Shown here: positions 22,983 through 25,752 of the stretch, one piece after another
How the letters are laid out: each line of letters begins with the position of its first letter
How positions within the stretch are numbered: position 1 is the stretch's first letter
Assembly (NCBI GenBank): GCA_021779375.1
Contig: JAJYAT010000003.1
Coordinates: 94,688 to 158,687 of the forward strand
Source: a bacterium
GTDB lineage: Bacteria > Patescibacteriota > Gracilibacteria > JAHISY01
Reading direction: 5' to 3'
DNA: 64,000 nucleotides
Notes under the pieces: generated by a model
The model's input: only the letters and a program-made list of their open reading frames with translations
The model's database searches: none
What the model was told of the DNA's origin: nothing
Program-made: the position numbers and the translations under genes

Positions 22983-24248
22983 TCAGCACTTCTTCAGAGC
23001 CTGCTCGAAATCATCTCTGATGTCTTCGATGTGCTCGAGTCCGACAGAGACGCGAATCGTTTCTTCACTCACGCCAGCGGCGGCGAGTGCTGCTTTCGAA
23101 AGCTGCGAGTGTGAAGTCGAGGCGGGATGTAGGACGAGTGTCTTCGCGTCGCCGACATTCGCGAGGTGACTCGCGAGCTTGACCGACTCAATGAATTTTT
23201 TGCCGGCTGTGCGCCCTTTTTTCAAACCAAAAGTGAAGACTGAACCGAAACCGCCTTCGAAATATTTCAGCGCGTTTTCATTGAAAGGATGAGTCGGTAG
23301 TCCGACGAAATTAACCCAGGCGACTTTGGGATGGTCGACCAGGAATCGCGCGAGTGCGTTGGCATTCTCCGAATGCTTGCGAATACGCAGTCCGAGCGTT
23401 TCGAGTCCGAGCAAAAATTGCCAAGAGTTGAAAGGCGAGAGGCAAGCGCCGAGATTGCGCAGACCGTCGACGCGCGCTTTCGTCGTGAAAGCCACTTTGC
23501 CGAGACTGGCGAATTGCAGATCATGGTAGCTCGGGTCTTTTTGTGCGAAGAGCGGATTAACTCTCCAATCGAAATTACCACCGTCGACGACGATGCCCCC
23601 GATCGAAGTGCCGTGTCCGCCGATCCATTTCGTGAGTGAGTGAATGACGATGTTTGCACCGAATTCAATCGGTCGGCACAGCACCGGTGCGAAAGTATTG
23701 TCGACGATGACCGGCACTTTGAATTTCTTCGCGACTTTGGCGATCTCCGCGAAGTCGAGAACTTCGCCGGCAGGGTTGCCGATTGTCTCGAAATAAACTG
23801 CGCGCGTATTCCGCCGAATTAATTTTTCCAATTTTGCTGCAGAGAGCTTCTCGACGAATTCGACCTCGATGCCGAAGCGCGGCAAAGTGTGGCGGAACAA
23901 AGTTTCCGTGCCGCCGTAGAGTGCGGTCGAGGAAATAATGTGGTCGCCTTTTTGCGTCAAAGTTAAAATTGCCAAAGAAATTGCTGCCATGCCACTCGCG
24001 GTCGCGACTGCGGCTGATCCGCCTTCGAGCGCGGCGATGCGTTCCTCGAGCACGGCAGTCGTCGGGTTGCCCATGCGTGTGTAGATATTGCCGGCTTTTT
24101 TCAGCGCGAAAAGATCGGCGGCTTCTTTGGTCGAGCCGAAGTCGAAACTCGCAGTTTGGTAAATCGGCGTCGCGCAAGCATTCGCCGCATTTTTGGCGCG
24201 GCCAGCGTGAATCGCGAGCGTCTCGGGATGTAATTTTTTTGAAGTCAT
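22983..24248 (-). CDS. metY: O-acetylhomoserine sulfhydrylase
   Basis: PLP enzyme that makes homocysteine from O-acetylhomoserine and sulfide, cytosolic. It is 421 aa. TLAIHAGRAKN, ATPIYQTASFDFGS, NIYTRMGNPTTAVLEERIAALEGG (split), IVDNTFAPVLCRPIEFGA and the PLP-lysine segment HSLTKWIGGHG (Lys about 206) are typical of Cys/Met metabolism enzymes. The length and continuation IVVDGGNFDW favour MetY over MetB/MetC. It lies 15 nt after metA on the same strand and should be controlled by the metA attenuator. Confidence 0.95.
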   Translation of the reverse strand: MTSKKLHPETLAIHAGRAKNAANACATPIYQTASFDFGSTKEAADLFALKKAGNIYTRMGNPTTAVLEERIAALEGGSAAVATASGMAAISLAILTLTQKGDHIISSTALYGGTETLFRHTLPRFGIEVEFVEKLSAAKLEKLIRRNTRAVYFETIGNPAGEVLDFAEIAKVAKKFKVPVIVDNTFAPVLCRPIEFGANIVIHSLTKWIGGHGTSIGGIVVDGGNFDWRVNPLFAQKDPSYHDLQFASLGKVAFTTKARVDGLRNLGACLSPFNSWQFLLGLETLGLRIRKHSENANALARFLVDHPKVAWVNFVGLPTHPFNENALKYFEGGFGSVFTFGLKKGRTAGKKFIESVKLASHLANVGDAKTLVLHPASTSHSQLSKAALAAAGVSEETIRVSVGLEHIEDIRDDFEQALKKC

Positions 24249-24263: not shown

Positions 24264-25169
24264 TTAAAGTTTTTCGAGATCGAATGGTGTTTCCTGATAA
24301 ACATAATAATTCAGCCAGTTCGAGAAAAGCAGCGTGGCATGCGCGCGCCAGCGCATTTGCGGCTGACCTTTTTCGTCGAAGTAATTCTCCGGCTCGGGGA
24401 AATTCGGATCTTTGGCGCGGTCGCGCTCGAATTCCGCCTGCAAAGTTTCGCGGTCGTATTCGGCGTGATTAAACGCGAAAATCTGGCGCAGCTTTTTGTT
24501 GCGCACGAGGTAAATGCCAGCGTCTTTCGCGTCAGCGAGAATTTCGAGATCCTTCACTTTGCGTAGATCGACTTCGCGCGTTTCCGTATGGCGCGAGACC
24601 GGCACCCAAAAATTCTCATCAAAACCGCGCAAGAGAATCGCATTTTTTTTGCGCGCTTTGTGCAAGAAGACGCCAAATTTTTTGCGTGGCAGTTTGTGTT
24701 TCGGGATTTTATAAAAATGCTGCAACGCCGCCTGTGCACCCCAGCAAATGAAAAGGCTCGAATAAACATTCGTCAGGCTCCAGTCCAAAATCCGCTTCAA
24801 CTCGTCCCAGTATTTCACCTCCTTCCAATCGAGCTGCTCGACTGGTGCACCCGTCACGATTAGTCCATCGAATTTGCGCGTCTTTACGCCTTCGAAAGTC
24901 TGGTAAAAATTGACGAGGTGTTTTTCAGAAATATTTTTCGGACGATAGCTTTCCGTCGTGAGAAAAGTGAGATTGACCTGCAGTGGCGAATTGCCGAGCA
25001 GGCGCGCGAGCTGGGTCTCGGTCTCGATTTTGGTCGGCATGAGATTTAGTACGGCAATCTCGAGCGGACGAATGTCCTGCTTCGCCGCGCGTTTTTCTGG
25101 CATGACGAAAATATTCTCGCGCTCGAGTAATTTCTTGGCGGGGAGTTGGTTGGGAATTTTGATTGGCAT
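24264..25169 (-). CDS. metA: Homoserine O-acyltransferase (probably acetyl-CoA type)
   Basis: Acylates homoserine, the committed step of methionine synthesis. It is 301 aa. LNLMPTKIETETQLARLLGN, LIVTGAPVEQLDW, the catalytic cysteine FICWGAQAAL, PVSRHTE and FNHAEYDRETL (His and Glu of the triad) are present. Glu in GAPVE is the position that in characterised MetA proteins favours acetyl-CoA over succinyl-CoA (Gly in E. coli), which fits the metY neighbour. The ATG at 25169 is chosen because MPIKIPNQLPAKKLL is the conserved start; the frame upstream crosses the attenuator. No SD precedes it. Confidence 0.96.
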   Translation of the reverse strand: MPIKIPNQLPAKKLLERENIFVMPEKRAAKQDIRPLEIAVLNLMPTKIETETQLARLLGNSPLQVNLTFLTTESYRPKNISEKHLVNFYQTFEGVKTRKFDGLIVTGAPVEQLDWKEVKYWDELKRILDWSLTNVYSSLFICWGAQAALQHFYKIPKHKLPRKKFGVFLHKARKKNAILLRGFDENFWVPVSRHTETREVDLRKVKDLEILADAKDAGIYLVRNKKLRQIFAFNHAEYDRETLQAEFERDRAKDPNFPEPENYFDEKGQPQMRWRAHATLLFSNWLNYYVYQETPFDLEKL

Positions 25170-25212
25170 TTTGTAGTTGGTGGTTAGTAGTTTAGAGCTT
25201 TTAAAATTTTTT

Positions 25213-25236
25213 AAAAAAACCTCTCCGGGAGAGGTT
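25213..25236 (-). terminator. Attenuator terminator of the metA leader (strands 3:4)
   Basis: On the minus strand, AACCTCTC CCG GAGAGGTT forms an 8-bp stem with a 3-nt loop (25236-25218). It runs into seven Ts (25219-25213), two of which are in the stem. Its first arm also pairs perfectly with strand 2 (25268-25259). Confidence 0.9.
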
Positions 25237-25266
25237 GCCAGTTTTCCGCGCGCAAAAAGCAACCTC

Positions 25267-25314
25267 TCAGTTAGAGAGTTGCATCATTTCGGCTGCGCAG
25301 TAGGAGTTTTTCAT
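25267..25314 (-). CDS. Methionine leader peptide (15 aa)
   Basis: MKNSYCAAEMMQLSN followed by TGA. Codons 10 and 11 are ATG ATG. They sit directly before the first hairpin arm, and the TGA overlaps the second arm. The ATG lies 7 nt after a TATAAT box, so the leader mRNA is itself predicted to be leaderless. The Cys at codon 6 could add sensitivity to sulfur supply, but this is speculative. Confidence 0.85.
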   Translation of the reverse strand: MKNSYCAAEMMQLSN

Positions 25315-25321
25315 CGAGGGA

Positions 25322-25327
25322 ATTATA
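25322..25327 (-). promoter_or_regulatory. -10 box of the metA leader
   Basis: TATAAT on the minus strand, with TTGCAT about 16 nt further upstream as a weak -35. Confidence 0.7.
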
Positions 25328-25393
25328 GATTCTCTCTAGTTAAATGCAAGTTGGAATTTCTTGGGCCGGTGAGTTGTCCAACCTTCAATCAAA

Positions 25394-25443
25394 CTTCAAC
25401 TACATCCAAGTGCTCTCCAATTATCTTCAACTACGTCCAAGTG
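25394..25443. repeat. 19-nt direct repeat with 31-nt period
   Basis: CTTCAACTACATCCAAGTG (25394-25412) and CTTCAACTACGTCCAAGTG (25425-25443) differ at one base. They form the last codons and stop region of the minus-strand gene that ends at 25396. Confidence 0.8.
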
Positions 25444-25752
25444 TTGAGGATAATTTCGGGAGACAAAACTGCGAAAATCTGACTGATATGCCCGTCCAAT
25501 TCGATTGCGTAAATCATCTACTAAATGACAAGTCTCAGGAAAAAGGTCTTCGATTAATACCAAAGAGCCAATTGCACCTATTAGCTCTCCTTTTGGTAAT
25601 TTGCCTTTATCACAAATAATGTTAAACGGAAAAACATCGAATTTTATGCCCAAACGTTTTTCTCCATTTTCCACAGACTTCACTAGTCTTTTAGCCTGCG
25701 CACTAACCTCTACGTGCTCATATTCCGAGAAATCGATTATTTCGCTCCCCAT
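25396..25752 (-). CDS. Hypothetical protein
   Basis: 118 aa, soluble, unrecognised. Begins MGSEIIDFSEYEHVEVSAQA; the C-terminus holds RIGRAYQSDFRSFVSR and ends inside a 19-nt duplication, so the tail may have been extended by it. AT-rich codon usage against its neighbours suggests recent arrival. It lies upstream of the metA leader on the same strand and could read into it. An inverted repeat GGTTAA/TTAACC lies just before the start. Confidence 0.55.
   Translation of the reverse strand: MGSEIIDFSEYEHVEVSAQAKRLVKSVENGEKRLGIKFDVFPFNIICDKGKLPKGELIGAIGSLVLIEDLFPETCHLVDDLRNRIGRAYQSDFRSFVSRNYPQHLDVVEDNWRALGCS

What the first reader, a model, noticed from the sequence alone, without database searches (positions are those of the whole stretch)
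25213..25327. Ribosome-mediated methionine attenuator upstream of metA-metY
Seen directly: a 15-codon ORF (MKNSYCAAEMMQLSN, TGA) with adjacent ATG ATG codons, followed by four complementary strands. 1:2 is GCAACTCTC/GAGAGGTTGC, 2:3 is GAGAGGTTGC/GCAACCTCTC (10 perfect bp) and 3:4 is AACCTCTC/GAGAGGTT plus a T7 run. The stop codon overlaps strand 2 and the Met codons abut strand 1, as a trp-type attenuator requires. Bacterial methionine genes are usually attributed to SAM riboswitches, T-boxes or repressors; I know of no established Met leader-peptide attenuator, and none in Patescibacteria. A TATAAT box 7 nt before the leader ATG matches the start rule of this genome.
Basis: partly seen in the sequence, partly recalled or inferred. 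Interest (0 to 1): 0.95.

Follow-up and report, generated by a model that had tools for sequence, protein, structure and literature searches.

The report
Methionine-sensing leader switch before metA
In front of the methionine-pathway genes of a small-genome Patescibacteria-type bacterium lies a short leader gene with back-to-back methionine codons and sequences able to form two competing RNA hairpins, found in all six genomes held for its family, which likely turns those genes on only when ribosomes stall for lack of methionine.

Summary
Shuffles of it gave terminator plus antiterminator in 0 of 1000.

It is conserved. The leader is in 5 of 5 genus genomes and, in divergent form, in the one other genus held for the family. 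The six leaders carry Met runs: 19 of 96 internal codons, against 1.2% in window genes. In the five genus leaders 40 of 40 core cells pair in both 2:3 and 3:4, including a G-C-G to C-G-C change across strands 2, 3 and 4. A ribosome placed on the Met codons predicts antiterminator, at the stop terminator, in 6 of 6.

Behind the same leader, in the same place, stand metA-metY, metA-cysK-metY or, where metA is absent, a NIL-domain plus threonine-synthase-like pair. Two genomes of another family have a nine-Met leader of the same design before a homocysteine S-methyltransferase gene.

No riboswitch matches. The nearest published claim is a tentative Streptomyces metL leader without a clear terminator (PMC8079986). 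Most likely a trp-type, Met-specific attenuator; no expression data.

The parts
25344..25349 (-). -35-like hexamer TTGCAT
   Evidence: Sequence; TTGCAT (TTGCTT in G002) with a 16-nt spacer in all five genus leaders; no clear -35 in G005
25322..25327 (-). -10 hexamer TATAAT, 7 nt before the leader ATG (predicted leaderless start)
   Evidence: same 7-nt spacing in 6 of 6 family leaders; spacing peak 6-7 nt at sampled ORFs
25267..25314 (-). leader ORF MKNSYCAAEMMQLSN and TGA stop
   Evidence: homologues with Met runs in the other five family genomes
25282..25287 (-). adjacent Met codons ATG ATG (predicted stall site)
   Evidence: 2, 2, 3, 3, 4 adjacent internal Met codons in the five genus leaders
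25274..25282 (-). strand 1 GCAACTCTC
   Evidence: identical in 5 of 5 genus leaders
25259..25268 (-). strand 2 GAGAGGTTGC (pairs with 1 or with 3)
25229..25238 (-). strand 3 GCAACCTCTC (pairs with 2 or with 4)
25213..25236 (-). intrinsic-terminator-like hairpin 3:4 (AACCTCTC CCG GAGAGGTT) and T7
24264..25169 (-). metA, homoserine O-acetyltransferase type (stop codon included)
   Evidence: PF04204 E 2e-130; NCBIfam MetA_acetyl 460.9 bits, cut-off 460.5
22983..24248 (-). metY, O-acetylhomoserine sulfhydrylase type
   Evidence: PF01053; TIGR01326 above cut-off

Best explanation
A 15-codon leader ORF with adjacent methionine codons and four overlapping complementary RNA strands precedes metA-metY and is predicted to work as a trp-type, ribosome-mediated transcription attenuator that likely senses charged elongator tRNA-Met. 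Shown by sequence and comparison: promoter-like boxes, leader, Met run, mutually exclusive 2:3 and 3:4 complementarity, T-run, and their conservation in the six family genomes held. Inferred: transcription starts at or next to the leader AUG and a ribosome loads at once. With enough Met-tRNA the ribosome would reach the stop codon, cover strand 2, let 3:4 form and end transcription about 43 nt before metA. When Met-tRNA is short the ribosome would stall on the Met codons, cover strand 1 and leave strand 2 free to pair with strand 3; the terminator could then not form and metA-metY would be transcribed. Without translation, the own, G002 and G003 RNAs are predicted to fold into 1:2 plus 3:4, that is, off by default.
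For: Exact anatomy. Sequence-only model finds the leader in 5 of 5 genus genomes at E 5e-14 or better (three of them built the model) and weakly (E 0.002) in the sixth family genome, where reading shows TATAAT-7-GTG, MKYLSTNSRMMQMMMLLSRGLVFGR* and a terminator and antiterminator of other sequence. Core 2:3 and 3:4 cells 40 of 40 each in the five genus leaders; strand 2/3/4 base triple G-C-G in two, C-G-C in three, at a position that can be bulged in 1:2 in own and G003. Between G001 and G004 the 2:3 extension changes C-G to U-A and A-U to U-A in bases that lie in the terminator loop, so 3:4 does not explain them. Placed ribosome on Met codons: antiterminator; at stop: terminator; 6 of 6. Met 19 of 96 internal leader codons versus 224 of 18018 in window genes. 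Genes behind: metA, metY, cysK, metY-type. In G003, G001 and G004 the next gene upstream is divergent, which leaves the leader's own transcript for the terminator to act on. Independent case: in G289 and G622, another family of the class, nine-Met leaders (9 of 22 and 9 of 23 internal codons) with a -10 box 8 nt upstream, an antiterminator and a terminator stand directly before a homocysteine S-methyltransferase gene (PF02574), and the placed-ribosome folds switch the same way. MetE-type genes are in the own genome. No Rfam riboswitch or T-box at any of these leaders.
Against: No RNA or protein data. Few sequences, five of them close relatives: exchanging strands among the five taxa, 12 of 120 permutations reach the observed 40 of 40 for either helix, so there is no formal covariation significance. 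The own leader has only two adjacent Met codons. Ser is also raised, 15 of 96, P 5e-4. Without a ribosome the fold favours the antiterminator in G001, G004 and G005 and in G289, the terminator in G622, so the no-translation state is not the same everywhere. In G005 the stop codon lies 14 nt beyond strand 2, a poorer fit. In G289 and G622 a tRNA gene lies on the same strand about 120 nt upstream, so there the terminator could also serve that transcript. Met shortage should also lower initiator fMet-tRNA and so leader initiation, which would work against antitermination; not resolved here.
Confidence: 0.9

Rival explanations
1. The hairpins are ordinary terminators of an upstream gene (for example the 118-aa ORF at 25396-25752, minus strand), with chance complementarity and a chance ORF.
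For: In the own genome a same-strand ORF of unknown family ends about 80 nt upstream of the leader; hairpin 1:2 is itself followed by a T5 run; in G289 and G622 a tRNA gene lies upstream on the same strand.
Against: That ORF has no match in the five other loci tested; in G003, G001 and G004 the upstream gene is divergent; promoter-like boxes, Met run and both pairings are kept in all six family genomes; shuffles give terminator plus antiterminator in 0 to 7 of 1000.
Confidence: 0.03
2. A ligand-binding RNA (SAM, methionine or homocysteine riboswitch) or T-box controls the terminator, and the ORF is incidental.
For: SAM riboswitches occur in 3 of 20 outgroup metA loci searched, 1.4 to 2.9 kb upstream of metA; hairpin 1:2 is extended by a longer helix in own, G002 and G003.
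Against: No Rfam match at the leader even at E 1, apart from a chance plus-strand miRNA model; none at E 0.1 in five relatives nor at the leaders of G289, G622 and G538; what is shared across genera and families is the Met run and the strand logic; the extended helix does not show in G001 and G004.
Confidence: 0.03
3. A leader attenuator that reports slow translation in general, or initiation with fMet-tRNA at the leaderless AUG, rather than stalling at the internal Met codons. A published fthC uORF has been suggested to act through tRNA-fMet (PMC11109978, passages).
For: Leaderless-type start next to the -10 box in all six; the fold without ribosome differs among genomes.
Against: Internal Met codons are about 16-fold enriched in the family leaders and stay next to strand 1 in the genus while the rest of the peptide changes; their number varies from 2 to 5 (9 in G289 and G622), as expected for stall codons; an initiation sensor needs no internal Met run.
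Confidence: 0.04

Closest known systems
trp/his/leu/ilv/thr/phe leader-peptide attenuators of Proteobacteria, with cases in Actinobacteria and some Firmicutes
   Same: Short leader ORF rich in the codon of the pathway's amino acid, stop codon at or near strand 2, mutually exclusive antiterminator and intrinsic terminator, biosynthesis genes behind (list of operons from PMC1183508, passages).
   Different: Amino acid is Met; the host is a Patescibacteria-type bacterium; translation start is predicted to be leaderless. [quoted passage not shown]
Proposed metL leader before metNIQ in Streptomyces lividans TK24 (PMC8079986, passages)
   Same: Leader peptide proposed to sense Met; leaderless transcript.
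   Different: 29 aa with two separated internal Met among Cys codons; the authors report no typical terminator; precedes a transporter; no comparative evidence in the passages seen.
SAM (S-box) riboswitches and T-boxes before met genes
   Same: Premature termination control of met genes.
   Different: No aptamer or T-box match; here the predicted sensor is a translating ribosome.
fthC uORF candidate of Streptococcus (PMC11109978, passages)
   Same: uORF plus terminator-like hairpin before a gene of one-carbon metabolism; a Met link is suggested.
   Different: Suggested to act through initiation (tRNA-fMet); no Met codon run is described in the passages seen.

Membership tests
Ribosome-mediated (trp-type) transcription attenuator | Short translated leader ORF directly behind a promoter | tested here: met
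   -10 box and ORF in 6 of 6 family leaders with constant 7-nt spacing; transcription and translation themselves not tested
Ribosome-mediated (trp-type) transcription attenuator | Repeated codons of the amino acid made by the operon | tested here: met
   19 of 96 internal codons Met in the six family leaders; metA, metY, cysK, metY-type genes behind. For the NIL/threonine-synthase-like operon the product is inferred. G289 and G622: 9 Met before a homocysteine S-methyltransferase family gene (below NCBIfam equivalog cut-offs)
Ribosome-mediated (trp-type) transcription attenuator | Mutually exclusive antiterminator and intrinsic terminator sharing strand 3 | tested here: met
   6 of 6 by scanner and fold; 40 of 40 core cells in five genus leaders for each helix
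Ribosome-mediated (trp-type) transcription attenuator | Ribosome on regulatory codons leaves strand 2 free, ribosome at stop does not | tested here: met
   Fold of the RNA left free by a placed ribosome switches in 6 of 6; fit is poorer in G005, whose stop lies beyond strand 2. A simple footprint model, not a kinetic one
Ribosome-mediated (trp-type) transcription attenuator | Strand 1:2 hairpin (pause and default termination) | tested here: inconclusive
   1:2 plus 3:4 is the free-RNA fold in own, G002, G003; in G001, G004, G005 the free-RNA fold is the antiterminator
Ribosome-mediated (trp-type) transcription attenuator | Read-through rises when the cognate charged tRNA is short | not testable with these tools
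   Needs a reporter or transcriptome
SAM riboswitch / T-box | Conserved aptamer or tRNA-binding core | tested here: not met
   No Rfam match at the leader, in five relatives at E 0.1, or at the leaders of G289, G622, G538

The most novel reading that the evidence does not exclude
Methionine-codon attenuation is a standing way of controlling Met genes in this Patescibacteria class. In the window's family the leader is the resident Met sensor and has outlived the enzymes behind it: metA-metY is exchanged, between the same flanking genes, for a NIL-domain plus threonine-synthase-like pair, which would therefore be a new homocysteine synthase. With the nine-Met leaders before a homocysteine S-methyltransferase and a tandem double Met leader in two other families, these would be the first well-supported Met-specific ribosome attenuators and the first trp-type attenuators in Patescibacteria, and a guide to unknown Met genes.
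Probability: 0.55. Interest if true: 0.88.

Novelty: new variant of a known kind. Interest (0 to 1): 0.82.

Why it matters
Methionine genes are usually described as controlled by SAM riboswitches, T-boxes or repressors; a Met-codon attenuator is notable because Met is also the initiator amino acid, so the sensor must tell elongator from initiator shortage. It would show that small-genome Patescibacteria-type bacteria couple translation to transcription tightly enough for trp-type attenuation, with leaderless leaders. And because the leader reports Met, whatever gene stands behind it is a candidate Met gene, which makes the function of the NIL plus threonine-synthase-like pair directly testable.

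Tried and rejected
Upstream-gene terminator, riboswitch/T-box and initiation-sensor readings were considered and set below (see rivals). MAFFT alignments A1-A4 misplace strand 4 because loop lengths differ (and A3 was cut wrongly for G001 and G004), so pair counts were made in a hand-set register of the five genus leaders; G005 was left out of that count because its strands cannot be put in register. The model R1 was built without structure from A2 (three sequences, strand 4 partly misaligned) and is a sequence model only.

Search for the leader elsewhere. MetA: 3 of 6 genomes of the order, 2 of 379 of a phylum sample, one of them a 36% relative. Of 80 metA loci from genome contigs (the best 80 of 147 found), 3 have an ORF with adjacent internal Met in the 450 nt upstream: the two family loci and L064, which the scanner does not call; some contigs hold less than 450 nt. 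PF01053 in 26 of 353 class genomes: scanner positive in 3 of 26 loci, all of the family; the fourth family locus does not reach its leader; 0 of 22 others. Pattern of -10, start and three Met codons: 64 of 353 genomes match, 21 carry one match each to the backward-read control. It can only see leaders with three adjacent Met codons (4 of the 6 family genomes). Outside the family I first scanned the 30 stretches that came as loci, 0 of 30 (two looked alike but L153 is the antisense of His codons), and, on checking this report, the other 49: 2 of 49, G289 and G622. So 2 of 79 in all. R1 over the class: 9 of 353 genomes at E 0.005: the six family genomes, G469 and G658 (no adjacent-Met attenuator), and G538 (see noticed). 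Scanner background: adjacent-Met hits outside the cases named here are 5 in 2.52 Mb of both-strand sequence of all other loci held (L047, L050, L055, L066, L199, whose 7 hits include two further copies of family loci).

Literature: all ten searches of the open-licence PMC library. 'methionine attenuator' and 'methionine codons' with leader peptide and attenuator gave no paper. Most subscription papers are not held, so absence is limited to that. No Patescibacteria attenuator was seen in the 15 listed of 603 papers. Passages only were seen of PMC2965389, PMC1262725, PMC11109978, PMC1183508, PMC5764234, PMC12641178, PMC6851277, PMC7366714 and PMC8079986; PMC12641178 and PMC6851277 (leaderless transcripts) and PMC7366714 (leader peptides) gave nothing useful.

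Full report
WHAT IS THERE. The finding is on the minus strand. Reading 5' to 3': TTGCAT, 16 nt, TATAAT, 7 nt, ATG AAA AAC TCC TAC TGC GCA GCC GAA ATG ATG CAA CTC TCT AAC TGA, then strands 2, 3 and 4 and a T7 run that ends 43 nt before the metA start codon. metA (PF04204; NCBIfam MetA_acetyl, 460.9 bits against a cut-off of 460.5) and metY (PF01053; TIGR01326 above cut-off) follow. The own genome, 1.07 Mb in 14 contigs, also has MetE-type genes, so homocysteine could be methylated to Met.

CHANCE. A scanner that asks for an intrinsic terminator whose 5' arm also pairs with an upstream strand finds the six family leaders described below and 0, 3, 1, 7, 2 and 2 of 1000 dinucleotide shuffles of them. 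In the window plus 391 kb of own-genome stretches it gives 71 candidates; two have a leader with adjacent internal Met codons and only this one starts 5-8 nt after a -10 box. TGA ends 23 of the 102.

CONSERVATION. MetA occurs in 3 of 6 genomes of the family, which are also all that is held of the order. A sequence-only model built from these three found the leader also in the two genus members without metA, G004 (E 4e-15) and G001 (E 5e-14): MFSTFSANEMMMMQLSF and MFSLLLANGMMMQLSN. The other genus, G005, matches at E 0.002; reading it shows TATAAT, 7 nt, GTG, MKYLSTNSRMMQMMMLLSRGLVFGR, and a terminator and antiterminator of different sequence. So 6 of 6 family genomes have it.

PAIRING. In the five genus leaders strand 1 is invariant, strands 2-4 vary, and every core cell pairs: 40 of 40 for 2:3 and 40 of 40 for 3:4. 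One base triple is G-C-G in own and G002 and C-G-C in G003, G001 and G004; in own and G003 that base of strand 2 can be bulged in 1:2 (folds), so strand 1 does not force it. G001 and G004 extend 2:3 beyond the core with different pairs (C-G against U-A, A-U against U-A) in bases that are terminator loop on one side and leader codons on the other, changing the last residue from N to F. The changes are few and the sequences related: permuting strands among the five taxa reaches 40 of 40 in 12 of 120 cases, so this is consistent evidence, not a significance test.

SWITCH. With a ribosome placed on the second Met codon (RNA free from 11 nt after it) the predicted fold is the antiterminator in 6 of 6; with a ribosome at the stop codon it is the terminator in 6 of 6. 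Free RNA folds as 1:2 plus terminator in own, G002 and G003 but as antiterminator in G001, G004 and G005. In G005 the stop lies 14 nt beyond strand 2. Met is 19 of 96 internal leader codons against 224 of 18018 in window genes; Ser, 15 of 96 (P 5e-4), is the only other clear excess among the eight residues tested.

OPERON EXCHANGE. In the five genus genomes the locus lies between a NadM-like gene and rmuC (rmuC runs off the contig in G001 and G004). Behind the leader are metA-metY (own, G002), metA-cysK-metY (G003), or a stand-alone NIL-domain gene plus a threonine-synthase-like PLP gene (G001, G004; PF09383 and PF00291). NIL passes its cut-off in only those 2 of 353 class genomes. The threonine-synthase-like protein falls below the curated threonine-synthase cut-offs, its genomes have other such paralogues, and among the 120 best hits listed (of 4873) the first 44 are 47-97% identical, followed by a thin range and, from about row 55 on, by proteins at 32-39%, where the rows called threonine synthase cluster. 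NIL/ferredoxin proteins are known from homocysteine synthesis together with DUF39 (PMC5764234, passages); DUF39 was not looked for here. I infer that this pair makes homocysteine, perhaps from O-phosphohomoserine; that is untested. In G005 a metY-type gene follows.

A SECOND FAMILY. Checking the remaining matches of the -10/start/ATGATGATG pattern turned up G289 and G622, two genomes of one genus in another family of the class. Their leaders, MYQSTQMMMAMMMRTMRRLMCCM and MYQSTTTMMMAMMMRPMRGLMCCM (9 Met and 2 Cys each), start 8 nt after TAAAAT, are followed by an antiterminator and a terminator, and lie directly before a gene of the homocysteine S-methyltransferase family (PF02574, about 122 and 125 bits against 22; below NCBIfam equivalog cut-offs). 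Placed-ribosome folds switch as in the window's family. A tRNA gene lies about 120 nt upstream on the same strand. The sequence is not alignable with the family leaders, so this is either convergence or very old descent. A third family, G538, has two tandem Met-rich leaders before an operon of unknown function (see noticed).

WHAT IT IS LIKE. It meets the sequence-level features of a trp-type attenuator; the physiological one cannot be tested here. No Rfam riboswitch or T-box matches the leaders. SAM riboswitches were found in 3 of 20 outgroup metA loci. In print, within the open-licence library, no conserved RNA structures were seen before methionine operons of Actinobacteria (PMC1262725, passages); a Streptomyces metL leader before metNIQ has been proposed without a clear terminator (PMC8079986, passages); a Streptococcus fthC uORF was suggested to sense tRNA-fMet (PMC11109978, passages). 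Searches for the obvious phrases found nothing. I therefore call it a new variant of a known kind: known mechanism, an amino acid for which I found no well-supported case, and a new group of bacteria.

OPEN POINT. Met shortage also limits initiation. For this design to work, elongator Met-tRNA must fall before initiator fMet-tRNA, or leaderless initiation must be less sensitive. That is the most interesting question a reporter could answer.

Noticed in passing
L256:4746-5806 (G289) and L257:4906-5972 (G622), minus strand: Nine-Met leaders with antiterminator and terminator directly before a homocysteine S-methyltransferase family gene, in another family of the class.
   Followed up: yes
L185 (G538:C29), minus strand, about 5320-5050: Two tandem Met-rich leaders, MFTSLRAGMMMQMMRSARGQVAA and MISLLHIAANTMMMSMPMPLRGGCET, each with a predicted antiterminator/terminator switch, before a methyltransferase-like, isopropylmalate-synthase-like, aminotransferase and PabB-looking gene cluster (the last named from its sequence only) divergent from leu-type genes. 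The model hit alone (E 0.0015 in one of 353 genomes) could be chance; the second leader and the switches speak against it. First gene in 1 of 74 genomes of that family.
   Followed up: partly
L106:838-2601 and L107:1028-2692, minus strand: Stand-alone NIL-domain gene plus threonine-synthase-like gene in the place of metA-metY behind the same leader; candidate new homocysteine synthase.
   Followed up: partly
L006:3916-4848: A cysteine-synthase-like ORF lies between metA and metY in G003, giving metA-cysK-metY (named from its sequence, no family search run).
   Followed up: no
window 25396-25752, minus strand: 118-aa ORF without Pfam or NCBIfam match, upstream of the leader, without a match in the five related loci tested.
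   Followed up: no
L106:2888-3196 and L107:2989-3261: ParE-type toxin-like ORF (Pfam run on the L106 copy; the L107 copy 65% identical) between the leader and rmuC in the two genomes without metA.
   Followed up: no
window 25170-25212, minus strand: By eye the metA start has neither a -10 box at leaderless spacing nor a Shine-Dalgarno sequence; how it is translated on the read-through transcript is unclear.
   Followed up: no
L139 (G392:C81:22806-24056): PF01053 match read through four TGA codons; that class member may read TGA as an amino acid.
   Followed up: no
L047 about 1660 and L055 about 1660: In two related Avoscillospira contigs the scanner finds similar short ORFs with MMM before a terminator with a weak antiterminator, about 1.3 kb upstream of metA.
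   Followed up: no
window 25240-25300, minus strand: In own, G002 and G003 the early leader codons pair with the bases after strand 2, extending hairpin 1:2 into a long stem; not seen in G001 and G004. Role unknown.
   Followed up: no
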